Origin: an uncultured Porphyromonadaceae bacterium | GTDB taxonomy: Bacteria; Bacteroidota; Bacteroidia; Bacteroidales; Muribaculaceae | Direction: 5' to 3' | Length of the DNA: 63,194 nucleotides | NCBI GenBank assembly: GCA_946410185.1 | Contig: CAMJZI010000004.1 | Location: 1-63,194 of the forward strand | Shown: positions 20,352 through 31,957 of the stretch, piece after piece | How positions within the stretch are numbered: the first letter of the stretch is position 1 | Layout of the letters: each line of letters opens with the position of its first letter | Program-made: the position numbers and the translations under genes | The notes under the pieces: generated by a model | What the model was told of the DNA's origin: nothing | What the model saw: only the letters and a program-made list of their open reading frames with translations | Database searches by the model: none

Positions 20352-21290
20352 TTAAAGTACTTTCTCGTTATTGAATTCCCGCACGATGTAGTCGGGACGG
20401 TTTTTGGTCTCGTTGTAGATACGGCCGATGTACTCGCCGATGATGCCTATCGAGAGCAGCTGGATGCCACCCAGGAACAAGATCAAAATCACCAGTGTGG
20501 GATAGCCCTGCACAGGGTCGCCCCAGATGAGCGCCTTGATAAAGACATATACCATGTACAGGAAGGCGAACAGCGAGACCAAGAAGCCTATCACCGTGGA
20601 GATGCGCAACGGGACATTGGTGAATGAGGTGATGCCATCGAGGGCAAACGAGAACAACTGGCGGTAGTTCCATGACGAAACGCCGCCAACGCGGTCGCCC
20701 TGCACAAACTCGATGTCTTTTTTCTTAAAGCCTATCCAGCAGTACAGGCCCTTGGTATAGCGTTCGCTCTCGCGCATCCGTTTCAGGGCATTGATGCAGC
20801 AGCGGTCCAGCAGCCTGAAGTCTCCCACATTCTGGAGCAGGTCAAAACGCGATGAACTCTGCAGAATCTTATAGAACAACAACGACAGGTGCTTGCGCAA
20901 CCAGCTTTCTCTGCCGCGCGACTTGCGCTTGGCATACACGTCGTCATATCCCAGTTCCCACCATTTGATCATCTCGGGGATGAGTGTGGGCGGATGCTGC
21001 ATGTCGGCATCGATGATAATCATGCAGTCGCCTGTCACATGGTCAAAGCCTGCGAGCATGGCTGCTTCCTTGCCAAAGTTGCGTGACAAGTCCAGATAAT
21101 TGACCCTGTTGTCTTGCAGGCGCATGTTCTTCAGCACTTGCAGCGTGCCGTCGATGCTGCCGTCATTGACAAACATGAGTTCCCACTCATAGCCGGTGTT
21201 CCCATCCATGAGTTTGACAAGTTCGGGATACAGCTGGGGCAAGGATTGCTCCTCGTTGTAGCAGGGGATAAGAATAGAGATCTTTTTCAT
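20352..21290 (-). CDS. GT2 polyprenyl-phosphate glycosyltransferase (GtrB/DPM-like)
   Basis: 312-residue membrane-bound family 2 glycosyltransferase, likely moving a sugar onto polyprenyl phosphate at the cytoplasmic face. The GT-A domain (residues ~1-210) has PCYNEEQSLPQLYPEL, VNDGSIDGT, a DADMQHPP metal-binding DxD block, and KRKSRGRESWLRK. Two C-terminal membrane segments (~230-295) match GtrB/YkoT-type proteins. It lies 27 nt downstream of the M16 peptidase and probably belongs to the operon headed by the S24 repressor. Confidence 0.88.
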   Translation of the reverse strand: MKKISILIPCYNEEQSLPQLYPELVKLMDGNTGYEWELMFVNDGSIDGTLQVLKNMRLQDNRVNYLDLSRNFGKEAAMLAGFDHVTGDCMIIIDADMQHPPTLIPEMIKWWELGYDDVYAKRKSRGRESWLRKHLSLLFYKILQSSSRFDLLQNVGDFRLLDRCCINALKRMRESERYTKGLYCWIGFKKKDIEFVQGDRVGGVSSWNYRQLFSFALDGITSFTNVPLRISTVIGFLVSLFAFLYMVYVFIKALIWGDPVQGYPTLVILILFLGGIQLLSIGIIGEYIGRIYNETKNRPDYIVREFNNEKVL

Positions 21291-21317: not shown

Positions 21318-22535
21318 TTATTGGAATGTGAGTGACGAGAGGGCATTGCTGTTCAGGTAGGCTGCGGCTTGCATGATCTGCTCGGCAGTCACTGCCTGAA
21401 TGCTGGCAATGGTCTCGTCGATGGTAGTCACGCGGCCGTGGTACAGGAGTCCGCGGCCAGCGCGCATCGCCATGAACTCGGTGCTGTCGGCGGCAACGAT
21501 TAGTTGGCCGCAGTACTGTTTTTTGTGGGCTTCAAGGCGGCGTTCGGTCAATGGCTCCTTGCTCAGACGGCTGGTGATGCGCTCAATCACGCGCAGGCTG
21601 GAGCGCACATCGGCGGGGTCGCACCCCAGATAGATTTCCATCCAACCGCAGTCGCTGAGCAACGTCAGGGACGACTCCACGGTATAAACATAACCACGAC
21701 GTTCACGCAACTCGACATTGAGCAGCGAATTCATGCCCGGGCCACCCAGGATGTTGTTGAGCAGCATCAATGCATGCCGCAGCGGGTGGTGCATATCGGG
21801 GACGCGGGCTCCCACAATGGTGTGGGCCTGATGGGTGCCAATCTGGATGGTGCGTTTGAAAGGTTCGCTCGCCATGGGAACCTGGCGGTGCCGAGGAGCC
21901 ATGGCATGGTTCATGCCGCTGAAGTGTCTCTCGGCCAAGTTGAACACACGCTCGGGGCGCTCAGGACCAACCGAGAAGAAAGCCATGTTGGTGGGCACAT
22001 ACAGCGTCTTGAGGTAACGCATGCAGTCGTCTTGGGTGAGACGTTCCAGGTCCTCCTTTCGCCCCAGAATGTTGTGGCCCAGTTCGCTGCCGGCAAACAT
22101 CAGGTCTTCATAGTCGTCATAGACCGCATCGCTGGGCGTGTCGCGGTAGCTGGCCGCTTCTTCGAGTACTACATCGCGTTCGCGGTCAAGTTCGTCGGTG
22201 GGAAATACCGACCATTGCACCAGGTCGGCAAGCAGGTCGATGGCTCGCGGCAGGTGCTGCTGGGGAAATACCGAGTAGAGCATGGTGCCCTCTTTGGTGG
22301 TATATGCGTTCAATTCGCCGCCAATGCGTTCCATGCGGTTCAGGATGTGCCATGCGCGCCTGTGCCGGGTGCCCTTGAAGATGGTGTGCTCCACAAAGTG
22401 GGCGAGTCCGAACTGACCGGGCTTCTCGTCACGGCTGCCGGCGTTGATGGCAAGCCCGCACCATGACACCTGCGTCGTGGTGTGGATGTGTACCAGCCGC
22501 AGGCCGTTGGACAGTGTGTGATAGTAGATATTCAT
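21318..22535 (-). CDS. M16 family zinc metallopeptidase
   Basis: 405-residue single-chain M16 (pitrilysin/processing-peptidase) protein. The inverted zinc site HFVEH is at residues 46-50, and the third ligand is probably Glu126 in RDVVLEEAASY, at the usual distance of about 76 residues. The C-terminal half has the partner domain (RRGYVYTVESSLTLLSD). No signal peptide is seen, so it is probably cytoplasmic. It starts 43 nt after the S24 repressor gene, suggesting co-transcription. Confidence 0.92.
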   Translation of the reverse strand: MNIYYHTLSNGLRLVHIHTTTQVSWCGLAINAGSRDEKPGQFGLAHFVEHTIFKGTRHRRAWHILNRMERIGGELNAYTTKEGTMLYSVFPQQHLPRAIDLLADLVQWSVFPTDELDRERDVVLEEAASYRDTPSDAVYDDYEDLMFAGSELGHNILGRKEDLERLTQDDCMRYLKTLYVPTNMAFFSVGPERPERVFNLAERHFSGMNHAMAPRHRQVPMASEPFKRTIQIGTHQAHTIVGARVPDMHHPLRHALMLLNNILGGPGMNSLLNVELRERRGYVYTVESSLTLLSDCGWMEIYLGCDPADVRSSLRVIERITSRLSKEPLTERRLEAHKKQYCGQLIVAADSTEFMAMRAGRGLLYHGRVTTIDETIASIQAVTAEQIMQAAAYLNSNALSSLTFQ

Positions 22536-22578: not shown

Positions 22579-23274
22579 TTACAAGCGGCTGTTGATGTGA
22601 AGGACATGTTGAACGAGGAATAACTCGTGAATATCGCTTCGGCGCACGTCCATGTCGTCGTAGTTCGGATTCTCGCTGCGCAGAACTACCATGTTGGGGT
22701 CGGTATGGCGGCGTACATACTTTACCAGCCTGAAGTCATCGAGTTGCACGACATAGATTTGTCCCCAATAAATCTGACTGGGATTGCTCAACTCGCGCAC
22801 GGCAATGAAATCTCCATCCTGGATGACCGGGGCCATCGAGTCTCCGCTAACGCGCACGATGCGGCAGTGGGGACTCATGTTGGGCAGGTTCACCCAACCG
22901 ACGATGTTCTCGTTGGCAAACAAGTCATTCCTGCCTGATGATGTCCCTGCCGTGGCATCCACGTTATAGACAGGAATGCCGTTAATGGCCGGAATGTCTG
23001 CCTGGCCGATGAGTGCGTCAGAGCCGTCAACTCGTGCTGTCGTTTTGCCAAACGGCAGGTCGGTGCCATCGATGAGCCATTCCTTGGACACGCCCAGGTT
23101 GACGACGATGCGGTTGAGAAAGGCATCGCTCAGTGGCATGTGCGCATTCAGATATTTCGACAGGTTGGATGTGTCCACATCGATGCGTTCGGCAAACTGC
23201 ACTTGCCGCACGCCCATTTCCTTCATCAGATATTTTATTCTTGCGATAATCTCGGCATTTTTTTGAGCATCCAT
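22579..23274 (-). CDS. LexA-like XRE/S24 autocleavable repressor
   Basis: 231-residue transcriptional regulator. Residues ~5-75 are an XRE helix-turn-helix (VQFAERIDVDTSNLSKYLN). The C-terminal S24 domain has a GDSM nucleophile (Ser146), a Lys185 general base in FRLVKY, and an Ala109-Gly110 cleavage site in VDATAGTSS. Spacings of 37 and 39 residues closely match LexA (35 and 37), so self-cleavage after DNA damage is plausible. Its promoter overlaps a perfect inverted repeat, implying autorepression. No phage genes are nearby, so it is probably a chromosomal regulator. Confidence 0.88.
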   Translation of the reverse strand: MDAQKNAEIIARIKYLMKEMGVRQVQFAERIDVDTSNLSKYLNAHMPLSDAFLNRIVVNLGVSKEWLIDGTDLPFGKTTARVDGSDALIGQADIPAINGIPVYNVDATAGTSSGRNDLFANENIVGWVNLPNMSPHCRIVRVSGDSMAPVIQDGDFIAVRELSNPSQIYWGQIYVVQLDDFRLVKYVRRHTDPNMVVLRSENPNYDDMDVRRSDIHELFLVQHVLHINSRL

Positions 23275-23312
23275 GATAATTGTTTTTTATCAATAATGTG
23301 TTTTTGTCGCGG

Positions 23313-23343
23313 CAAAATTACCACAAAAAGTTGTATTATGCAA
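23313..23343 (-). promoter_or_regulatory. Promoter of the S24 repressor operon
   Basis: On the minus strand, TTGC (23340-23343) is followed after 19 nt by TAATTTTG (23313-23320), close to the Bacteroidota -33/-7 consensus. The -7 box overlaps the left arm of the operator. The leader to the ATG is about 30 nt. Confidence 0.7.
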
Positions 23344-23355
23344 TTTTTGTGGTAA
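23318..23355. promoter_or_regulatory. Inverted-repeat operator for the S24 repressor
   Basis: TTACCACAAAAA (23318-23329) and TTTTTGTGGTAA (23344-23355) are a perfect 12-bp inverted repeat with a 14-nt spacer. The repeat covers the repressor's own promoter, so a bound dimer would block transcription of the repressor gene. Confidence 0.7.
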
Positions 23356-23367
23356 TAATTGCTATTC

Positions 23368-23380
23368 TTTACCACAAATT
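23368..23380. promoter_or_regulatory. Third half-site abutting the CotH promoter
   Basis: TTTACCACAAATT repeats the operator half-site TTACCACAAA and overlaps the -33 TTGG of the plus-strand promoter, placing that promoter under likely control of the same regulator. Confidence 0.55.
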
Positions 23381-23410
23381 GGCGATATAACGCTTTTTTT
23401 TATAATTTTG
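23379..23410 (+). promoter_or_regulatory. Promoter of the operon facing the repressor
   Basis: TTGG (23379-23382), a 20-nt spacer, then TAATTTTG (23403-23410). This is a good Bacteroidota-type promoter, 30 nt before the CotH lipoprotein start. Confidence 0.65.
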
Positions 23411-23440
23411 CACTGTAGAAACATGACTTGATTTGATGTG

Positions 23441-24859
23441 ATGATGAAAAGGCTTGTGCAGATATGCTTGTTGCTGATGGCGATGGCACTTGCTTTGGGT
23501 GCCTGCCACAAGGAGCGGTGTGCGCATAATTTTCCTCCCGACAATACCGATGTGCGGGTCGATTCCTCCAATCTGCCCCTGGTGTGGATTGTTGTGAACG
23601 GAGATTCCATCATGCGCGACAAGCGCATCTCGGCCTACATCAAAATCATTCACAACGGCGATGGTCGTCTCAACTATGCCGATACGATTGCCCACCCGGG
23701 GCAGCATGTCGATTACGAGGGGTATATTGCCTTGAGGCATCGTGGCAACTCTACCTATAACTCAAGTCCCAAAAAGCCTTATTCGTTCCGCACCTTAAAG
23801 CAGCCCCTGTTCAAGAGCGGCAAGAAGAAAAAAGTGGCTATTCTGGGCATGGGTAAAGACAATAACTGGGCTCTGCATGCACCCTACAGCGACAAGAGCA
23901 TGATGCGTGACCTCCTGGCCTATGAAATATCCAGGCCATGGATGGAATATGTGCCCCAGGGACGTTTTTGCGAACTGTTTGTTGATGGTGTGTACTACGG
24001 GGTGTATGTCCTCTCTGAAGTGGTTTCCACAGGCAAGCATCGTCTGAATCTGCCTGGACCTGGTGATCAGGGTGATGCCTTGACCGGTGGATACTTGATG
24101 GAGGTCGATTGTAATGACGACGAAACCTACACGTCAAAGCATTGCCCCGTGACGGCAAGCGGTGACCCCATTGAGGACCGACGCATCCTGTTCCAGTACA
24201 AGTCGCCAGACCGCGACGATTTGACCCAGGCACAACTCCGCTACATCCGTCGCCACATCGATGACATGGAAAATGCCCTGGACCAGGGGCGATACGGCCG
24301 GTTCATTGATGTGATGTCTTTTATCGACTATCAGTTGGCGATGGAGTTGGGACACAATGTGGACGGCTACCGCTTGAGTGGCAAGTTCTATAAGCGCCGC
24401 GACAGCGAGGATCCGAGATTTAAAATGGTGGTATGGGACATGAATCTTGCCTATGGCAACGCCAATCGCTTGGATGGATGGCGCACCGACACCTGGATTT
24501 ATCAGAGTAACGACCTGATGTACAATCAGGGCGAGGTTTATCTGGTGCCCTTCTGGTGGCAACGCCTCAACAATGACCCGCAATATGCCGCCAAGCTCAA
24601 GGCTCGCTGGGCTCAGTACCGTGCTGCTAACTTGAGCGAAGACCGCCTGATGCACACGGTGGACTCCCTGGCCGCGGTGCTCAAGGCATGCGGTGCTGAG
24701 TATCGCAACAGCCAGGCGTGGCCCAGGTGGGGAGTGCAGGTCTGGCCCAACCACTATGTGGCAAAAGATTTCAACGATGAAATTGCCCATCTCAAGCAAT
24801 GGCTGCATGAGCGCATCGCCTGGATGGACCGCCAGCTGGGCTACCACACTAACCTGTAA
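23441..24859 (+). CDS. CotH-like kinase, lipoprotein form
   Basis: 472-residue protein closely similar to the CotH gene at 12511 over its whole catalytic part: LRHRGNSTYNSSPKKPYSFR, ILGMGKDNNWALHAPYSDK, CELFVDGVYYGVYVLSEVV, GKHRLNLPGPG and MVVWDMNLAYGNA. It has a lipoprotein signal (MALALGAC, Cys as the +1 residue) instead of a plain signal peptide, and stops where the other copy continues into dockerin repeats. The start is one of GTG-ATG-ATG at 23438-23446; 23441 matches the MMKR start of the paralogue. It is first in the unit controlled by the operator region. Confidence 0.85.
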   Translation: MMKRLVQICLLLMAMALALGACHKERCAHNFPPDNTDVRVDSSNLPLVWIVVNGDSIMRDKRISAYIKIIHNGDGRLNYADTIAHPGQHVDYEGYIALRHRGNSTYNSSPKKPYSFRTLKQPLFKSGKKKKVAILGMGKDNNWALHAPYSDKSMMRDLLAYEISRPWMEYVPQGRFCELFVDGVYYGVYVLSEVVSTGKHRLNLPGPGDQGDALTGGYLMEVDCNDDETYTSKHCPVTASGDPIEDRRILFQYKSPDRDDLTQAQLRYIRRHIDDMENALDQGRYGRFIDVMSFIDYQLAMELGHNVDGYRLSGKFYKRRDSEDPRFKMVVWDMNLAYGNANRLDGWRTDTWIYQSNDLMYNQGEVYLVPFWWQRLNNDPQYAAKLKARWAQYRAANLSEDRLMHTVDSLAAVLKACGAEYRNSQAWPRWGVQVWPNHYVAKDFNDEIAHLKQWLHERIAWMDRQLGYHTNL

Positions 24860-24887
24860 TAACCTATAAACTATAATTATTAACAAC

Positions 24888-25070
24888 ATGGCACATATCT
24901 GCGAGAATTGCAAATTCAGGGCTCACTACGACGAGAAGCCCAATTCAGTGCTGGGCAAGTTCTGGCGCTGGCACATCAACTTCTGCCCTGGCTGGCGCAG
25001 TTACTTCACACGCCAGAGCGAGGAGAAAAAAGCCGAGTTAAGAACTAAATATAATTTCAACAAGTACTAG
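24888..25070 (+). CDS. Small Cys/Trp-rich protein of unknown function
   Basis: 60-residue protein starting MAHICENCKF, with a CxxC pair, a third Cys (NFCPGW) and a Lys-rich tail. It could bind a metal, but only three cysteines are seen. It starts 28 nt after the CotH gene and ends 13 nt before the thioesterase, so it is a regular member of the operon. I do not recognise the family. Confidence 0.65.
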   Translation: MAHICENCKFRAHYDEKPNSVLGKFWRWHINFCPGWRSYFTRQSEEKKAELRTKYNFNKY

Positions 25071-25083
25071 AACCAGAGACATC

Positions 25084-25455
25084 ATGCTTCAAGAAGGATT
25101 GACCCACACCAGCCAGTTGACCGTCAACGAGGCTGTAACGGCTGTGGCCATAGGCTCGGGCGACATGCCTGTGCTGGCCACCCCGTCGATGATGGCGCTC
25201 ATGGAGAACGCCGCCATGCTCGCCGTGGCCAACTATCTGCCCGAGGGCTGCACCACCGTGGGCGGGCACATCGCCTCCTCCCACCTCAAGCCCAGCAAAC
25301 TGGGCGACATCGTCACCGCCACCGCCACGGTCACCCGCGTCGAGGGAAAGAAAATCGAGTTCAAGGTCGAGGCCCATTGCGGCGACACGCTGCTGGGCGA
25401 GGGCACCCACCTGCGCTTCATCGTCGACCGCGAGAAATTCCAGTCAAGACTGTAA
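25084..25455 (+). CDS. Hot-dog fold thioesterase (FlK-like)
   Basis: 123-residue cytoplasmic acyl-CoA thioesterase-like protein. The pattern resembles fluoroacetyl-CoA thioesterase relatives: Thr and Glu in TPSMMALMENAAMLAV and His in GGHIASSHLKP. The C-terminal strands (VTATATVTRVEGKKIEFKV) complete one hot-dog domain. It would act as a dimer or tetramer. The substrate is unknown; it is coupled by 13-nt gaps to genes on both sides. Confidence 0.85.
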   Translation: MLQEGLTHTSQLTVNEAVTAVAIGSGDMPVLATPSMMALMENAAMLAVANYLPEGCTTVGGHIASSHLKPSKLGDIVTATATVTRVEGKKIEFKVEAHCGDTLLGEGTHLRFIVDREKFQSRL

Positions 25456-25468
25456 AAACAGCATCGCC

Positions 25469-25888
25469 ATGGCCAATAAAAAGATATATTTTGCAGGCTC
25501 CATCCGTGGCGGGCGCGTCGATGCCGCGTTGTATCACCGCATCATCAGTTACATCCAGCGCACCGACGTGGTCTTGACCGAGCACGTCGGCAAGAGCAAC
25601 CTGAACCTGATGGAACAGGGCCGCGAGCGCGACGCGAGCATCTATGACCAGGACACGGCATGGCTGCGCGAGAGCGATGTGCTCATCGGCGAGTGCACCT
25701 GCCCGTCGCTGGGCGTGGGCTATGAGTTGGCCTATGCCGAGGCCCGCGGCATCCCCTGCCACATCTTCTACGACTCGACCAAGGCCCAACTGTCGGCCAT
25801 GCTGACCGGCAATCCCTATTTCCACATCCATCCTTACACCACCGAGGCCGACATCTACCCCCTGCTCGACCAGATTCTCAACCCTTGA
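25469..25888 (+). CDS. DNPH1/Rcl-like 2'-deoxynucleoside 5'-phosphate N-hydrolase
   Basis: 139-residue nucleoside 2-deoxyribosyltransferase-fold enzyme. It starts IYFAGSIRGGR, has VVLTEHVG and DTAWLRESD, and carries ECTCPSLGVGYELAYAEA with the catalytic Glu86. These match DNPH1 (Rcl), which removes abnormal bases such as 5-hydroxymethyluracil from deoxynucleoside monophosphates and keeps them out of DNA. Plain deoxyribosyltransferase activity is the alternative. Its place in the repressor-facing unit with an AlkZ-like gene supports a nucleotide-sanitation role. Confidence 0.82.
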   Translation: MANKKIYFAGSIRGGRVDAALYHRIISYIQRTDVVLTEHVGKSNLNLMEQGRERDASIYDQDTAWLRESDVLIGECTCPSLGVGYELAYAEARGIPCHIFYDSTKAQLSAMLTGNPYFHIHPYTTEADIYPLLDQILNP

Positions 25889-25892
25889 CGGC

Positions 25893-26063
25893 ATGACCCA
25901 GAAGGAATTTGACAAAATCAACCATTCGTCACACAGGAGCGCGGCCAAGGCACCCACCGTGCTGGAGATGTTGAGCCCGTTCGAGAAAATCGACTTTGGC
26001 GTTCCCGGTGTATCCTGGACGGTGTTTGACAAGAACCGCATCTACGAGGGTGAGAACACTTAA
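25893..26063 (+). CDS. Small ORF, possibly frameshifted
   Basis: 56-codon ORF (MTQKEFDKINHSSHRS...) starting 4 nt after the DNPH1-like stop. The composition looks coding, with FGVPGVSWTVFDKNRIYEG near the end. It stops at 26061, but the -1 frame carries on with a natural-looking Pro/Lys tail (LSPPEVPPKAYKNKK) to a stop at 26107. One missing base near 26058-26060 would explain this; the intact protein would be about 71 residues. No family recognised. Confidence 0.4.
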   Translation: MTQKEFDKINHSSHRSAAKAPTVLEMLSPFEKIDFGVPGVSWTVFDKNRIYEGENT

Positions 26064-26126
26064 GCCCTCCAGAAGTACCTCCCAAGGCCTACAAGAACAA
26101 GAAGTAAAGACTAAATCAGCACGACA

Positions 26127-26225
26127 TTGTTTCTCAATCTGGCCATCATCATATTGCTATTCATCTTGCTGTTGTACAGAAAGAAGATGAATCAAGTGGA
26201 TAAAGAAACAAATAATAAACAGTAA
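26127..26225 (+). CDS. Candidate 32-residue membrane micropeptide
   Basis: From a TTG codon the frame reads a strong membrane helix (LNLAIIILLFILLLY), then RKK and a polar tail, stopping 4 nt before the AlkZ-related gene. There is no ATG in frame upstream of the helix, so the start is uncertain. The hydrophobic-then-basic layout and tight spacing favour a real peptide. Confidence 0.35.
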   Translation: MFLNLAIIILLFILLLYRKKMNQVDKETNNKQ

Positions 26226-26229
26226 TCAC

Positions 26230-26901
26230 ATGTTACAGCGAGGAATGATACACAATGCGACGGAATTGGTGGACTTGATCCAGGAGATCGGCTTCCTGCC
26301 GTTGCTCTATAGCGGTATCAGCGGCTACTCGGCCGAGGATGTCGTGGATAGCGATTGCCGCTATGTCGTGTATGACGACGGCGGCTGGGACTGGCCCATG
26401 TGGAAGTGGAAAGGCCCGATCGTGACCGAGAGTCCATGCGTCTATGGCAAATTCTTTGACAAGAAGGCAGGTTACATCAGCATGGACTGGTGGCCTGACT
26501 TCATGAACTGGAGGCGTGCGACCCATCCCGCTCCTGCCGAGGGATCGATCGAGGAGGCTATCGTGCTCACCCTGCGAGAACACGGAAGCCTCATCACGCG
26601 CGAACTGCGCAGTGCCTGCGGTTTTACCGGCACCAAGATGCGTGGCCGTTTTGACGGCTATGTGACCCGGCTGCAGATGGCGTGCCGCATCGTCACCCAG
26701 GACTTTGTCTATCCGCGCGATAAGCATGGCCGTGAGTATGGATGGGGCTGGTCGCTTCTTACCACGCCCGAGCAGCTGCTGGGCAAGGAGGCTTGCCACT
26801 GCGACCACTCGCCCCAGGAGTCACTTCATCGCATGGTTGTTCACCTCAAGGGCTTCCTGCCCCAGGCCAGCGAACAACAGATTATGAAATTACTCAAATA
26901 A
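26230..26901 (+). CDS. AlkZ-related winged-helix protein
   Basis: 223-residue cytoplasmic protein. Residues ~90-165 resemble winged-helix segments of AlkZ/YcaQ DNA glycosylases (SIEEAIVLTLREHGSLITRELRS, then MRGRFDGYVTRLQMACRI). The N-terminal half has a Trp-rich stretch (DGGWDWPMWKWKG). It is shorter than true AlkZ (about 400 residues), and I do not see the QxQ catalytic motif, so it may bind DNA without glycosylase activity. It lies in the repressor-facing unit with the DNPH1-like gene. Confidence 0.65.
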   Translation: MLQRGMIHNATELVDLIQEIGFLPLLYSGISGYSAEDVVDSDCRYVVYDDGGWDWPMWKWKGPIVTESPCVYGKFFDKKAGYISMDWWPDFMNWRRATHPAPAEGSIEEAIVLTLREHGSLITRELRSACGFTGTKMRGRFDGYVTRLQMACRIVTQDFVYPRDKHGREYGWGWSLLTTPEQLLGKEACHCDHSPQESLHRMVVHLKGFLPQASEQQIMKLLK

Positions 26902-26926
26902 TAATGAATAACTACTACCTATTTTT

Positions 26927-27292
26927 ATGAAAAGAATTCTTATCATCCTTGCCATGCTCATGGCCATGAACGTGGCGAGCGCTCAAAAGATCAGCCACAT
27001 CGAGGCCACGCGCTCATGGTATTACGTCTATGACGATAATGGCAAGAAGGTGTACACTTTCAGTGCCAGCCAGGGCGAGCTGGTCGCCTATAGCGAGTCG
27101 TTCTATATCATCAAGCATGGTAGTTGGTACTATACCTATAATGCCAAGGGCAAGCGTTTGCACACGTTCTCGGTGAGCAATGTGGGCGAGGTTCTGAATG
27201 CTGCGGGCGACACGTTTACCAGCCGCAAGGGCAGCTGGATCTATACCTGGGACAAAAACGGCAAGCGATTGGCAACACGCTCCGCCCGGTAG
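26927..27292 (+). CDS. Secreted tandem-repeat protein
   Basis: 121-residue protein with a signal peptide (cleavage after NVASA) and about two and a half copies of a 36-37-residue repeat, each starting SWYYxYDxxGKKxxTFS. The Trp/Tyr-rich hairpins recall repeat beta-strand modules, but I know no named function. Last gene of the run behind the S24-controlled promoter, 25 nt after the AlkZ-related gene. Confidence 0.6.
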   Translation: MKRILIILAMLMAMNVASAQKISHIEATRSWYYVYDDNGKKVYTFSASQGELVAYSESFYIIKHGSWYYTYNAKGKRLHTFSVSNVGEVLNAAGDTFTSRKGSWIYTWDKNGKRLATRSAR

Positions 27293-27332
27293 CGCTTTTT
27301 TGCAGCCGTCAACTTTTATTAACGCTGGGAAC

Positions 27333-27363
27333 TTGCATATTTCAGTGTTTTTTCCTATATTTG
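27333..27363 (+). promoter_or_regulatory. Promoter of sbcDC
   Basis: TTGC (27333-27336), a 19-nt spacer and TATATTTG (27356-27363) form a good -33/-7 pair, 74 nt before the sbcD ATG. Confidence 0.65.
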
Positions 27364-27437
27364 TCCAAAGAAAAACAACCAGGGGAAAATGTGTATGACA
27401 ATTTTACAAATTCATGTATTTATCAGAGTGTTTGCCA

Positions 27438-28637
27438 ATGTTTAGATTTATCCACACCAGCGACTGGCATTTAGGCCAGAATTTTTACGGCTATGACCGC
27501 AGTGAGGAACAACGCGACTTCCTGCGGCAATTGGCCGACATCGTGCGCGAACAAGAGCCCGATGCCTTGCTCGTGAGCGGTGACATCTTTCACACGGCTG
27601 CGCCGTCCAATGCCGCCGTCAACATGTATGTCGATGCGATGCTCGACATTCACAAGGCGTGTCCTGGCATGACCATCATCGTCATTGCGGGCAACCACGA
27701 CAGCGCTTCTCGTCTCGACAGTGACAAGCGGTTGTGGCGCCTGGCCAACGTGAATGTGCTGGGCGGTATTGCTCGTAACCATGATGGGTTTGCCGACCTT
27801 GAACGTCACGTCGTCAAGGTGGGCGACAAGGGCATCGTTGCCGCAGTGCCGTTTGCCTATCCTAACAGCTTCCCTAAGGTCGAGCAGGCCGAGGTGGAGC
27901 GTGGACAGCGTCAACAGGCTTATTTCCAGGCTTTGCTTGACCTTGTCAATGCCAGCAATGCCGGTAACGTGCCCGTCGTGCTGATGGCCCACCTGGCTGT
28001 GGCCAATAGCGACTTGACGGGTCACAGCAATAACATGAAGATGGAATGTGTTGAGATGGGCATGCTGGGCAAGGGTTATGACTACGCCGCGCTGGGCCAC
28101 ATCCATCGTCCACAGCAGTTGGGCGGGTGCGCACGCTACTGCGGCACACCAGTCCCTGTGAGTTTTGATGAGCAGTGCGAGCACTCGGTGAGCATTGTTG
28201 AAATTGATGGTCATGGTGCTCTGCCGCGCGTCACGACCAAGGTCATCAAGAACCTGAAACCATTACACACCATTCCGGCTCGCGAACCCGTGGATTTTGA
28301 GACGGCACTGGCACTGTTGCAGTCCATCGATGATGACGACCGCTCCTACATCAGGCTCAATGTCAAAGTGGACGATTTCCTGCCCGTAGCCAGCCAGGAG
28401 CGGGCGGCCATGGCATTGAAGGGCAAGCAATGCCGTTTTTGCGAAATCAAGGTGACATCCACCACCGTCGCTACACGTGGCAGCGTGAAGATGACGGTTG
28501 AGGAATTCAACAAGAAAACGCCGCTGGATATCGCCAACCAGTTCTATCTTGACGAGGTTGGTCACGCCATGAGCGACAAACAGCAGGAAATGTTCAACTA
28601 TATCTGCCAACTTGTGGAGGAGGAAAACCGACAATGA
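27438..28637 (+). CDS. sbcD: Exonuclease subunit SbcD (Mre11-like)
   Basis: 399-residue metallophosphoesterase subunit of the SbcCD complex, which opens DNA hairpins and trims blocked DNA ends. Phosphodiesterase motifs are in order: HTSDWHLGQ, VSGDIFHTAAPS, GNHDS, MAHLAV and LGHIHRPQ. The ATG at 27438 gives the canonical MFRFIHTSDWHLG start; the in-frame ATG at 27414 adds eight unrelated residues. It overlaps sbcC by 4 nt (ATGA), implying coupled translation. Confidence 0.96.
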   Translation: MFRFIHTSDWHLGQNFYGYDRSEEQRDFLRQLADIVREQEPDALLVSGDIFHTAAPSNAAVNMYVDAMLDIHKACPGMTIIVIAGNHDSASRLDSDKRLWRLANVNVLGGIARNHDGFADLERHVVKVGDKGIVAAVPFAYPNSFPKVEQAEVERGQRQQAYFQALLDLVNASNAGNVPVVLMAHLAVANSDLTGHSNNMKMECVEMGMLGKGYDYAALGHIHRPQQLGGCARYCGTPVPVSFDEQCEHSVSIVEIDGHGALPRVTTKVIKNLKPLHTIPAREPVDFETALALLQSIDDDDRSYIRLNVKVDDFLPVASQERAAMALKGKQCRFCEIKVTSTTVATRGSVKMTVEEFNKKTPLDIANQFYLDEVGHAMSDKQQEMFNYICQLVEEENRQ

Positions 28638-31600
28638 AACTTAAAAAACTTACCATCGACAACATCGCATCGATCGATCATGCCGTGATCGACTTTGATG
28701 CCGCACCGCTCAGCAACGAACATCTGTTTCTCATCACCGGGCAGACGGGTTCGGGTAAGTCCACCATCATCGACTGCATCTGCCTGGCTCTCTATGGCAC
28801 CACGCCCCGCTTGAAGAGCGCCTCAAAGGACAAGTATGAGGCCAGCAAGGGCCAAAAGCCAATCAATGCCGCTAACTCCAAACAATTGCTGCGTCGTGGC
28901 GCGCTGGCAGCCGATGTCTGCCTCACCTTTGACAACAACGAGGGCATCCCTTATGTCGCTACCTGGCATGTGCATCGCGCCGACAAAAAAGTTGATGGCA
29001 ATATCATCGGCCCAAGGCGCATCCTGCGCACAGCCGAGGGTGTCAACCCTACTGACTATGCTGAGAATAGCGAGGTTGATAATCGTATCCATGAGATTAT
29101 CGGCCTGGACGTGAACGAGTTCTTCCGCACTGTGGTGCTCGCTCAGGGCAAGTTTGCCGAATTCCTGGCCAGCAGCGAGAAAGATAAGTCCGATTTGCTC
29201 GAGAAGATGACAGGCACCAAGGTATATTCCCAAGTGGGCAAAAAGATTTATGAGGTGTACCGCGAGCAGGAAAACCAGTGCAAACTGATGCGTGAAGCGT
29301 TACAGCAGATTGTTTTGCTCACCGATGACCAGAAAGCTCAAATCAAGGAGGATGTCATTCAATTCTCTAAGCTGAGAGACGAGGCTCTCAAGCTGCGCGA
29401 CGGTGCCAAGAATATGGCCAACTGGCTCGATGAGAAGACCAAAAATGAGCGCGATTTGGAGCAAAAGAACCGTGACATCGCCGCAAAGCGGGACTTGGCT
29501 CGTGGGCAGGCACACGTCGAACGCCAGCAACTGGTTGCCGACTGGGATGCCACCATCGGGCCACGCCGCGAGTTGCGGGAGTGCCAGCGTGCCGAGCGCG
29601 AGATAGAGTCACTTCAAGCCAAGCAGCCCGCCATGCAGGAGGAGTTTGATGAACTGTGCGCGGATCTTCGTGCCGCTACCGACGACCTGACCGCTCAACG
29701 TGGCAAACTCAAGTCGGCCGAGGATTTCCTGCAGCAAGAGGCTCCCAACAGCGAGATGTACAAGAGCATCAAGGGCATTAAGATGTTGCTCAAACAGCGA
29801 AAGAACGAGCAGTCGAACATCGTGGAGTTCTCCAAAACCTTGCAGCGCGAAACCGAACGCCAGCCTGGAGCCGAAGCGCAGGTCAACGATGCGTTACAGG
29901 CGGTGAGGCAGCAAGAGGCACTGGTCAGTGAACTGCAGTCGCAGTATGATGCGATGGGCGTGAGTGGCATCAATCGCCAGAAAGATGCCATGGCCGATGC
30001 CAAGCAAGCGCTCTCCCAACTCAAAAATGCCCACGAGGCCGTTGCCCAGGCCGCTACGAGACTGAGTGGGCACGAAACCGACCTTGCGAAAGAAAAGTCT
30101 AATCGGGAGCAATGGCAGAGCACCCTTGAGGATAAGCGCCTTATCAAGGAGCAGGCCCATGCCGCCGTAGAGCGGGAGACCGACTGGAACAACCTGCTGC
30201 AACAGGCCCACAAATCGCTCCACGAGGGGGATACATGTCCCGTGTGTGGTAACAAGATCAAGAAGTTGCTTACTCCCAAGGGCGAGAATGTGCTCGATGA
30301 GTTAAGAAATCAGTTCAAACTGGCCGAGGAGAATCTGAATGTTACCATGGCCAATATTACTGCGGCAGACAAGAGTATCGACCGCATCAACCGATTGATT
30401 AAGCTGGCCGATAAAGAAGTCGAGGAGAAGAAACTTGCGTGTGACAGGCAGTGGCAGCAGACCAGCAGGCTGTTGCAGCAATGCGGCATGGTAGTGGACA
30501 GGATGCCCGATAGCAATCAGGCCGATGCGCTCATCGCCGACCTGGTAAAGGAGATGGCGAGCCTGAACAGCCAGCTGGAACAGGCCAGCCAACTCAATGA
30601 CCGCATTACTACCGAGCGCAAGAATCTGGCCAGTCTTACACAGGCCCATAACATGGCTGTGATGGAATTGAGCCAGGTGATGACCAGCATCAAAACCCAG
30701 AAGGAGGCCATCGCCAGCAGCACCGTGAGGATGCAGGCTCGTACTGCCGAACTCAATGCGGTGCTCACCATCAGCGACTGGCAAGAACGCGTCGAGCGTG
30801 ATGACGATTTCATCGTCGGGCTGGAGCGTCGTGCCATCGACTATCTGGACAAGGAATCGCTCGTGCAGCGGCTCAGACGTGACATCGGCATCGCTGCTGC
30901 CGTCATCCCTGCCATGACGGCCCATAAAGCCGGCATCACGGGGCTGCAGGATCACGGCAAGACTGTCGAGGGTGTGCCGCGCGACTTGGAGGAGCAATGG
31001 CGCAATTTCAAGAACCGATACAGCCAGTGGAACAACAATCTGGACAACGAGCGTGCCAATGCTCGGCGCTCACGACAACTTTTTGAACGCTACATGAGTG
31101 ATAACCCTGGTGTGACCGTCGAACGCCTCGCAAGTCTGGACCGTCGTCAGCAGGGCGAGATTGATGCTATGCGCCGGACCATTCAGGAATTGAATGATTC
31201 GATAACCCGCATGCAGGGCGAATTGGCAACACTTCTCGAGCGCAACAAGGACCTCATGGCCCATAAGCCCGTTTTCCCCGTCGATAACCGTGGGGAATTG
31301 GACAAAATCCACACCGATAACCACAATAAGTATGAGGAATTGTCGGCCCAGGTGGCCATGCTCAACGAGCAGCTGCGCCAAGACCAAATCAATGCCAATT
31401 TGGTAGGCGAGAAAAAAGACAAGCTCGACAAGGCCGAGGCCCAGTGCCGGCAATGGGCCGAACTCAATGACAAACTGGGCAGCGCCGATGGCACTAAATT
31501 CCGCAACATTGCCCAGAGCTACATTCTGGGCGAGTTGCTCCACAACGCTAACGGCTATTTGAGCCAGTTTAATGATCGCTATGAGTTGGTGGCTAAACCG

Positions 31601-31957
31601 GGCACACTCATCATCCTGGTGCGTGATCTGCTGCAGGGTGACCTCACGTCAGTTGCCACATTGTCGGGCGGAGAGAGCTTTATGGTATCCCTGGCTCTGG
31701 CTCTGGCACTGTCAAGTGCGACGGGCAAAATGTTCAGCGTGGACACTTTGTTTATCGACGAGGGCTTTGGGTCACTCAGCGAGGAATACCTCGGTAGCGT
31801 GATGGAAACGCTCAACCGCCTCTATGATTTGGGCGGCAGACGTGTGGGCATCATCAGCCATGTAGAGATGCTCAAAGAGCGTGTCGCCACCCAGATTCAA
31901 GTAAAACGCAACCCAGCCAACAATACCGTCAGCCAGGTCAACGTAGTGACTACCTGA
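28634..31957 (+). CDS. sbcC: Exonuclease subunit SbcC (Rad50-like)
   Basis: 1107-residue SMC-like ATPase partner of SbcD. Walker A (GQTGSGKST) is near residue 36. Long coiled coils flank a zinc hook (Cys535-Pro-Val-Cys538), and the ABC signature LSGGESF at ~1010 is followed by Walker B (VDTLFIDEGFG). Length and order are normal for the family. It shares the 27333 promoter with sbcD. Confidence 0.96.
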   Translation: MKLKKLTIDNIASIDHAVIDFDAAPLSNEHLFLITGQTGSGKSTIIDCICLALYGTTPRLKSASKDKYEASKGQKPINAANSKQLLRRGALAADVCLTFDNNEGIPYVATWHVHRADKKVDGNIIGPRRILRTAEGVNPTDYAENSEVDNRIHEIIGLDVNEFFRTVVLAQGKFAEFLASSEKDKSDLLEKMTGTKVYSQVGKKIYEVYREQENQCKLMREALQQIVLLTDDQKAQIKEDVIQFSKLRDEALKLRDGAKNMANWLDEKTKNERDLEQKNRDIAAKRDLARGQAHVERQQLVADWDATIGPRRELRECQRAEREIESLQAKQPAMQEEFDELCADLRAATDDLTAQRGKLKSAEDFLQQEAPNSEMYKSIKGIKMLLKQRKNEQSNIVEFSKTLQRETERQPGAEAQVNDALQAVRQQEALVSELQSQYDAMGVSGINRQKDAMADAKQALSQLKNAHEAVAQAATRLSGHETDLAKEKSNREQWQSTLEDKRLIKEQAHAAVERETDWNNLLQQAHKSLHEGDTCPVCGNKIKKLLTPKGENVLDELRNQFKLAEENLNVTMANITAADKSIDRINRLIKLADKEVEEKKLACDRQWQQTSRLLQQCGMVVDRMPDSNQADALIADLVKEMASLNSQLEQASQLNDRITTERKNLASLTQAHNMAVMELSQVMTSIKTQKEAIASSTVRMQARTAELNAVLTISDWQERVERDDDFIVGLERRAIDYLDKESLVQRLRRDIGIAAAVIPAMTAHKAGITGLQDHGKTVEGVPRDLEEQWRNFKNRYSQWNNNLDNERANARRSRQLFERYMSDNPGVTVERLASLDRRQQGEIDAMRRTIQELNDSITRMQGELATLLERNKDLMAHKPVFPVDNRGELDKIHTDNHNKYEELSAQVAMLNEQLRQDQINANLVGEKKDKLDKAEAQCRQWAELNDKLGSADGTKFRNIAQSYILGELLHNANGYLSQFNDRYELVAKPGTLIILVRDLLQGDLTSVATLSGGESFMVSLALALALSSATGKMFSVDTLFIDEGFGSLSEEYLGSVMETLNRLYDLGGRRVGIISHVEMLKERVATQIQVKRNPANNTVSQVNVVTT

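What the first reader, a model, noticed from the sequence alone, without database searches (positions are those of the whole stretch)
22579..27292. SOS-like locus: LexA-type repressor facing a gene series with a deoxynucleotide hydrolase and an AlkZ-like protein
The S24 protein has Ala109-Gly110, Ser146 and Lys185 at LexA-like spacings, implying damage-triggered self-cleavage. The opposing promoter reads into CotH kinase, small Cys protein, thioesterase, DNPH1-like hydrolase, two tiny ORFs, AlkZ-related protein and a secreted repeat protein, with gaps of 4-28 nt apart from the 26064-26126 stretch. Two members fit removal of damaged bases or nucleotides. I recall classical LexA being uncommon in Bacteroidota, so this could be a lineage-specific DNA-damage regulon. 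Motifs and layout are seen; the damage link is inferred.
Basis: partly seen in the sequence, partly recalled or inferred. Interest (0 to 1): 0.8.

Follow-up and report, generated by a model that had tools for sequence, protein, structure and literature searches.

The report
Self-regulating LexA-like repressor in Bacteroidales
The gene encodes a switch protein that resembles the bacterial DNA-damage repressor LexA and appears to control its own promoter in many gut Bacteroidales, but the row of genes facing it is mostly a local arrangement and the usual DNA-repair genes that were checked do not carry its site.

Summary
The layout is real: a CI-type HTH + S24 protein (22579-23274, minus) with A109-G110, S146 and K185 faces CotH, a 60-aa Cys protein, FlK thioesterase, a DNPH1-type hydrolase, two tiny ORFs, an AlkZ-related protein and a secreted protein, with the stated gaps. 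The cleavage residues are conserved (A, S, K 59 of 59; G 58 of 59). The repressor is in 37 of 37 genomes of the genus, with 46-53% orthologs in other genera and families of the order. An operator-like block lies on its own promoter in the genus (51 of 59); orthologs elsewhere carry GGTA-N4-TACC there.

The damage regulon is not supported: the block is absent from umuD, umuC, dinB and recA promoters (0 of 22, 24, 5 and 46), the facing set is missing in 14 of 37 close loci, and a half-site at the facing promoter occurs in 1 of 17. The constant partner is the co-directional M16 gene (39 of 39 close loci).

Best reading: a domesticated, autoregulated phage-type repressor, probably damage-cleaved, with a small local regulon like Francisella FddR, in an order reported to lack non-canonical LexA (PMC8565304).

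The parts
22579..23274 (-). HTH_3 + Peptidase_S24 repressor, 231 aa; A109-G110, S146, K185
   Evidence: Pfam; residues invariant or nearly so in 59 relatives and in 15 orthologs of 44-63% identity incl. other families
23313..23343 (-). repressor's own promoter, TTG-N20-TAATTTTG
   Evidence: block conserved in 51 of 59 repressor promoters of the genus
23311..23322 (-). candidate operator GGTAATTTTGCC over the -7 element
   Evidence: exact in 35 of 44 genus promoters; counterpart of GGTA-N4-TACC in other families; binding not tested
23318..23327 (+). half-site TTACCACAAA, the conserved one
23346..23355 (+). half-site (TTTGTGGTAA), extra copy, not general in relatives
23369..23378 (+). half-site TTACCACAAA next to the -33 element of the facing promoter
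   Evidence: 1 of 17 facing promoters
23379..23410 (+). promoter-like match of the facing series, TTG-N21-TAATTTTG
21318..22535 (-). M16 (insulinase-type) peptidase, 43 nt downstream of the repressor on the same strand
   Evidence: Pfam; 3' of the repressor in 39 of 39 close loci
20352..21290 (-). glycosyltransferase-2-like protein, 312 aa (named by eye), 27 nt after M16
   Evidence: beside M16 in most close loci
23438..24859 (+). CotH protein
   Evidence: facing in 17 of 37 close loci
24888..25070 (+). 60-aa Cys protein
   Evidence: 12 of 37
25084..25455 (+). FlK-type thioesterase
   Evidence: 22 of 37
25469..25888 (+). DNPH1-type 2'-deoxynucleoside 5'-phosphate N-hydrolase
   Evidence: 15 of 37
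25893..26063 (+). tiny ORF, 56 aa
   Evidence: matched in only 2 of 37 close loci
26127..26225 (+). tiny ORF, 32 aa, TTG start
   Evidence: mechanical ORF; not tested for conservation
26230..26901 (+). AlkZ-related protein (Pfam PF24741)
   Evidence: 13 of 37; no Q-x-[QD]
26927..27292 (+). secreted repeat protein, 121 aa
   Evidence: 12 of 37
27333..27363 (+). separate promoter-like match before sbcD, TTG-N20-TATATTTG
27414..31957 (+). sbcD-sbcC exonuclease genes
   Evidence: NCBIfam; facing side in 13 (sbcD) and 11 (sbcC) of 37 close loci

Best explanation
The S24 protein is a chromosomal, vertically kept, phage-type (CI-like HTH) repressor that represses its own promoter. RecA filaments formed after DNA damage probably trigger its cleavage at A109-G110, which would lift repression of itself and of what shares its transcription unit or intergenic region: here the co-directional M16 peptidase and glycosyltransferase genes and, in this genome only, perhaps the CotH-led series. 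It would be a small self-contained unit like Francisella FddR rather than a classical SOS regulon. Shown: family, conserved residues, presence through the genus, orthologs in other families, conserved block on its own promoter, lack of that block at the recA, umuC, umuD and dinB promoters examined. Inferred: DNA binding, repression, cleavage, the damage trigger, co-transcription.
For: HTH_3 + S24 with A, S, K 59 of 59 and G 58 of 59. 37 of 37 genus genomes; 19 orthologs of 46-53% in a sample of the order; order-level orthologs form one group arranged largely by family. Own-promoter block in 51 of 59. In other families GGTA-N4-TACC at the same place: 9 exact sites in 5 of 19 promoters, shuffle mean 0.05. 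No block at umuD, umuC, dinB, recA, hydrolase or AlkZ-related promoters. M16 3' of the repressor in 39 of 39 close loci. Precedent: FddR (PMC13148647 abstract and section 10).
Against: No binding, cleavage or induction data exist here. In the genus one half of the proposed operator is TGCC, not TACC, and it overlaps promoter elements; 8 of 59 repressor promoters miss the block and 7 of 19 in other families show no such palindrome. Three of 16 sbcD promoters (L060, L069, L070) reach the matrix threshold with a site of their own, and four FlK-facing loci (L051, L056, L061, L063) keep a half-site-like TTTGTGGTA/TTTATGGTA/TTCATGGTA farther out in the gap, which would argue for a somewhat wider regulon. 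M16 is not the neighbour outside the genus.
Confidence: 0.57

Rival explanations
1. One reading: an SOS-like master repressor whose damage regulon includes the facing series and nearby sbcDC.
For: Cleavage residues. DNPH1-type hydrolase and sbcDC nearby; in diverged relatives sbcD is the first facing ORF of 80 aa or more in two loci (L077, L081), recA lies downstream in one other genus (L329) and mutS in another family (L331). Window-only half-site at the facing promoter. Three sbcD promoters with a site.
Against: None of the series in 14 of 37 close loci; half-site at the facing promoter in 1 of 17; sbcDC has its own promoter-like match and the window's lacks the site; no block at umuD, umuC, dinB, recA. 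Series led by CotH and a thioesterase, with no known repair role.
Confidence: 0.12
2. A domesticated phage-type repressor that no longer answers DNA damage: cleavage or inactivation is triggered otherwise (for example envelope stress), consistent with M16 peptidase, glycosyltransferase and CotH neighbours.
For: Constant M16 partner in the genus; no block at the SOS genes examined; a RecA-independent LexA-like protein, IrvR, is reported in Streptococcus mutans (PMC7101444, start of abstract in a search listing only).
Against: The A-G site and the S-K pair are kept although only self-cleavage needs them; neighbours outside the genus differ (trmB-like, mrp-like, gapA-like).
Confidence: 0.2
3. The conserved block is only a strong promoter, not an operator; the repressor acts elsewhere.
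For: In the genus the block overlaps the -33 and -7 elements; L064, L078, L080, L085 and L087 gave no aligned block, and the one of L079 was dropped as spurious.
Against: The spacer itself is conserved (columns -13 to -1 carry about 0.7 to 2.0 bits). In other families palindromes lie downstream of the -7 match and exceed shuffles.
Confidence: 0.1

Closest known systems
FddR of Francisella (PMC13148647; abstract and section 10 read)
   Same: Phage-type S24 repressor in the chromosome, palindrome in its own promoter, small network of itself and a divergently transcribed gene instead of a classical SOS regulon.
   Different: Other phylum; motif GTG-N11-CAC against GGTA-N4-TACC or its genus variant; here binding and induction are untested, and in the window's genus the constant partner is co-directional, not divergent.
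Non-canonical LexA of Bacteroidetes (PMC8565304; abstract, passages and sections 13, 14, 16, 19 read)
   Same: HTH_3 (PF01381) + S24, Ala-Gly site, Ser-Lys pair, chromosomal, palindrome in its own promoter.
   Different: The paper reports both groups absent in Bacteroidales; CTAA-N5-TTAG, GGA-N5-TCC and TTAC-N5-GTAA are in 0 of 49 and 0 of 19 promoters here; no site at umuDC, dinB or recA promoters. Relation in a tree to the published sequences not tested.
Classical LexA
   Same: S24 domain with A-G, S, K.
   Different: DNA-binding half is HTH_3, not LexA_DNA_bind.
lexA-yneA / lexA-divS and UmuDAb-DdrR divergent pairs (yneA, divS recalled; DdrR from search listings PMC7273328, PMC11332147 only)
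   Same: In five other families of the order the repressor is beside a conserved protein of about 106 aa, facing it where read, with palindromes between in several.
   Different: That protein matches no Pfam or NCBIfam family (5 of them tested in the latter) and was not found in the loci of the window's genus that I hold.

Membership tests
Classical LexA | LexA_DNA_bind winged helix (PF01726) | tested here: not met
   HTH_3 instead, no PF01726 hit; none in the own genome
Bacteroidetes non-canonical LexA | HTH_3 (PF01381) N-terminal domain plus S24 domain | tested here: met
Bacteroidetes non-canonical LexA | Ala-Gly cleavage site and Ser-Lys pair | tested here: met
Bacteroidetes non-canonical LexA | published operator (CTAA-N5-TTAG, GGA-N5-TCC, or the diverged TTAC-N5-GTAA) in its own promoter | tested here: not met
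   0 of 49 and 0 of 19 promoters
[quoted passage not shown]
   own-promoter block absent at umuD, umuC, dinB, recA promoters: 0 of 22, 24, 5, 46; other SOS genes (uvr, ruv, recN, ssb, imuB-dnaE2) not examined
Bacteroidetes non-canonical LexA | extra C-terminal alpha-helix | not tested
Bacteroidetes non-canonical LexA | common clade with the published proteins | not tested
FddR-like self-contained unit | palindrome in its own promoter, conserved among orthologs | tested here: met
   met as sequence, binding not tested
FddR-like self-contained unit | divergent gene with the same motif, conserved in the lineage | tested here: inconclusive
   five other families: ~106-aa gene beside the repressor; window's genus: facing gene varies, site at its promoter 1 of 17
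FddR-like self-contained unit | induction by DNA damage | not testable with these tools
   needs RNA-seq or RT-qPCR
DNPH1 / Rcl hydrolase (25469-25888) | sequence similarity to solved DNPH1 enzymes over the whole length | tested here: met
   1.2e-25, residues 5-135 of 139
AlkZ DNA glycosylase (26230-26901) | Q-x-Q/Q-x-D catalytic motif (recalled) | tested here: not met
   no match in the protein; no AlkZ structure among its hits; Pfam names it only AlkZ related

The most novel reading that the evidence does not exclude
This is the missing DNA-damage repressor of a Bacteroidales clade: a third lineage of non-canonical LexA-like proteins with its own operator (GGTA-N4-TACC), reduced to self-contained units. 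In five families it faces an unknown protein of about 106 aa that would be the damage effector (division inhibitor or corepressor); in the window's genus that partner was lost and the M16 operon took its place.
Probability: 0.33. Interest if true: 0.72.

Novelty: new variant of a known kind. Interest (0 to 1): 0.5.

Why it matters
Bacteroidales are major gut bacteria. The 2021 survey reports its non-canonical LexA groups absent in this order (PMC8565304, section 16), and a 2010 paper on Bacteroides fragilis says no SOS-like response was known there (PMC3025348, passages). A repressor found in every one of 37 sampled genomes of a genus and in several families of the order, with all cleavage residues and a candidate operator, gives a single gene with which to test how this group senses DNA damage, and would be another case of a phage repressor taken into housekeeping use.

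Tried and rejected
Classical LexA hidden in the genome: not found in the own genome; weak hits in 4 of 37 genus genomes. The own genome is 62% complete, so absence there is weak evidence.

Operator scattered through the genome: in the own genome TTACCACAAAAA with up to 1 mismatch gives 11 places against 14 for the reversed control; only the two at this locus are exact. Across the genus, looser patterns hit beyond the repressor's own promoter (30 of 61 genomes; 64 of 81). I fetched and looked at 20 chosen places: ordinary promoters (mutase-like, nucleosidase-like, AbiEi-like, LysR-like, glycosyltransferase-like ORFs, named by eye) or coding sequence, no repair gene among them. The other listed places were not looked at.

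GTGCCA-N5-TGGCAC as an operator of the same repressor: rejected, since 1 of 59 repressor promoters has it even within 2 mismatches; reported as a side finding.

Relation to published non-canonical LexA by a phylum search: outside the order the hits have 23-32% identity. Of 15 distant loci given to the script (4 of the order, 11 from the phylum search) it placed 10 promoters; none carries a published motif. They may be other phage-type repressors; no conclusion.

Phage relatives: viral contigs gave 3 loci, similar in the S24 half only (36-45%). Structure prediction: never ran, the machine was busy seven times, so no fold was compared. Rows dropped before counts: L079 from the promoter matrix and from the 44; duplicate promoters and duplicate proteins were collapsed.
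Full report
CHECK OF THE OBSERVATION. The window is contig C4 of an incomplete genome (62% complete, 117 contigs). Pfam confirms HTH_3 + Peptidase_S24, CotH, FlK thioesterase, Nuc_deoxyrib_tr and AlkZ-rel. The hydrolase is closest to solved DNPH1/Rcl (1.2e-25). A109-G110, S146 and K185 are present; among 59 distinct aligned proteins (window included) A, S and K are invariant and G110 is kept in 58. The inverted repeat between the two opposed genes is not chance (arm of 13 nt; 2 of 1000 shuffles reach it).

Only 6 stretches of the 63-kb window, both strands, match the Bacteroidetes promoter form TTG-N19..22-TAnnTTTG (form recalled). Three are here: the repressor's (23313, minus), that of the facing series (23379, plus) and one before sbcD (27333, plus). 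So sbcD-sbcC follow the series but have a promoter-like match of their own. On the repressor's own strand the M16 peptidase gene starts 43 nt downstream and a glycosyltransferase-like gene follows after 27 nt; no promoter-like match lies between repressor and M16.

CONSERVATION. The repressor was found in 37 of 37 genomes of the genus and 2 of 24 others of the order. In a wider sample of the order 24 of 295 genomes matched, the own one included; 19 of these have 46-53% identity. In the phylum sample 13 of 296 matched, the own one included; the ten outside the order have 23-32%. In 31 genus genomes this HTH-S24 protein is in all 31; UmuD-sized S24 proteins are in 23, and five further S24 hits are sporadic. 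LexA's own DNA-binding domain gives weak hits in 4 of 37 genus genomes, two just over the curated cut-off, and none in the own genome. A tree of 25 proteins puts the order-level orthologs in one group arranged largely by family (support 91/94), with a viral repressor and one distant Bacteroidales protein as the next branch; the program warned of long branches elsewhere in the tree. This fits phage origin followed by vertical descent.

OPERATOR. The repressor's promoter is strongly conserved, spacer included. A 19-column matrix from it finds the block in 51 of 59 distinct repressor promoters of the genus, against 1.9% of about 600 random windows. GGTAATTTTGCC over the -7 element is exact in 35 of 44. 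In other families of the order the region upstream of the gene carries GGTA-N4-TACC, often twice: 9 exact sites in 5 of 19 promoters (shuffle mean 0.05), plus 4 with N3 (shuffle mean 0); a looser GGTW-N3..5-WACC is in 12 of 19, and 7 show nothing of the kind. The two forms share one half (GGTA) and differ by one base in the other (TGCC for TACC). That they are one operator is an inference.

REGULON TEST. No umuD (22), umuC (24), dinB (5), recA (46, both types), DNPH (15), AlkZ-related (13) or secreted-protein (12) promoter reaches the matrix threshold. sbcD does in 4 of 16: one is the repressor's own site in a shared gap (L031); three (L060, L069, L070) overlap the sbcD -7 box, and the window lacks them. 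M16 and frr reach it in 1 of 51 and 1 of 36. Hits for CotH (13 of 18), FlK (4 of 23) and Cys60 (2 of 12) are on the other strand, that is, the repressor's own block in the shared gap. Four FlK-facing loci (L051, L056, L061, L063) keep a half-site-like stretch farther out in the gap. In 8 genomes of three other families, exact TGGTA-N4-TACCA is rarer than its reversed control in 7 of 8; of 24 places I looked at 23 and at the last: four are repressor promoters, most others lie in coding sequence, and a few stand singly before ksgA-like, trpB-like or unknown genes (named by eye). A half-site touching the facing promoter is found only in the window (1 of 17 facing promoters that the script recognised). 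Other SOS genes (uvr, ruv, recN, ssb, imuB-dnaE2) were not examined one by one.

NEIGHBOURS. Of 37 close loci (75% identity or more) with at least 7.5 kb on the facing side, CotH is there in 17, Cys60 in 12, FlK in 22, DNPH in 15, AlkZ-related in 13, SLP in 12, sbcD in 13, sbcC in 11 and the 56-aa ORF in 2; 14 have none of the set within reach. Where four or more are present (14 loci), 11 keep the window's order. M16 lies 3' of the repressor in 39 of 39 close loci and in 4 of 10 diverged ones, some of which are cut by contig ends. In the diverged clade sbcD is on the facing side in 3 of 7 loci with room, directly facing in L077 and L081 (L031 is the same contig as L077 by its length). Elsewhere in the order a common order is gapA-like, ~106-aa gene, repressor, trmB-like, mrp-like (names by eye); one genome has recA downstream (L329) and one mutS (L331). 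The ~106-aa protein is found in 13 of 19 of these loci, in five families, with a similar ORF in a 14th; it faces the repressor in the 12 of 13 where I read the orientation (L277 not read). Four of these proteins gave no Pfam match above cut-off and five no NCBIfam match.

COMPARISON. A 2021 paper shows that many Bacteroidetes use HTH+S24 proteins as LexA, with motifs CTAA-N5-TTAG and GGA-N5-TCC, and says both groups are absent in Bacteroidales (PMC8565304, section 16). None of these motifs, nor TTAC-N5-GTAA, occurs in the promoters here (0 of 49; 0 of 19). The closest working model is FddR of Francisella (PMC13148647; abstract, and section 10): a phage-type S24 repressor that regulates itself and a divergent gene. 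Searches for an SOS regulator in Bacteroidales or Muribaculaceae gave nothing closer; the library holds only openly licensed papers.

CONCLUSION. The locus holds a real, conserved LexA-like repressor with a conserved operator-like block on its own promoter, in an order reported to lack non-canonical LexA. The facing 'damage operon' is mostly a local arrangement. The most likely function is an autoregulated, damage-cleaved, small local unit; binding, cleavage and induction remain to be tested.

Noticed in passing
G000:C49 and G000:C23 (L191/L214, L198); same-genus genomes: Two full-length recA-like genes in 17 of 37 genus genomes, the own genome included. The second type (367-368 aa, starts MTEQ) carries GTGCCA-N5-TGGCAC within 2 mismatches upstream in 14 of 14 distinct promoters; the reversed control is found in none of the recA promoters.
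   Followed up: partly
L217, L233, L240, L247, L220, L232, L237, L244, L246: The palindrome GTGCCA-N5-TGGCAC also lies upstream of a family of ~102-aa proteins and of peroxiredoxin-like, ClpB-like, RelA-like and ~412-aa ATPase-like ORFs (named by eye): an unknown regulon in the genus.
   Followed up: partly
L274:908-1225 (-), L283:2499-2816 (+), L281:2523-2849 (+), L286:2631-2951 (+): Conserved protein of about 106 aa beside the S24 ortholog in five other families of the order, without a Pfam or NCBIfam family.
   Followed up: partly
L123, L126, L127, L129, L137 against L128-L136: umuD stands next to umuC in some diverged members of the genus, while in the window's clade umuC follows an ABC-F-like gene and umuD lies elsewhere.
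   Followed up: no
L340 (IMGVR_UViG_3300028591_002761): A viral contig carries a repressor whose S24 half is 45% identical to this one and which joins the Bacteroidales family in the tree beside a distant member, next to RecT-like and Rad50-like ORFs (named by eye).
   Followed up: no
window 26230-31957: AlkZ-related, SLP and sbcD genes keep a fixed spacing in 12 close loci, although their distance from the S24 gene varies: a small cassette of its own.
   Followed up: no
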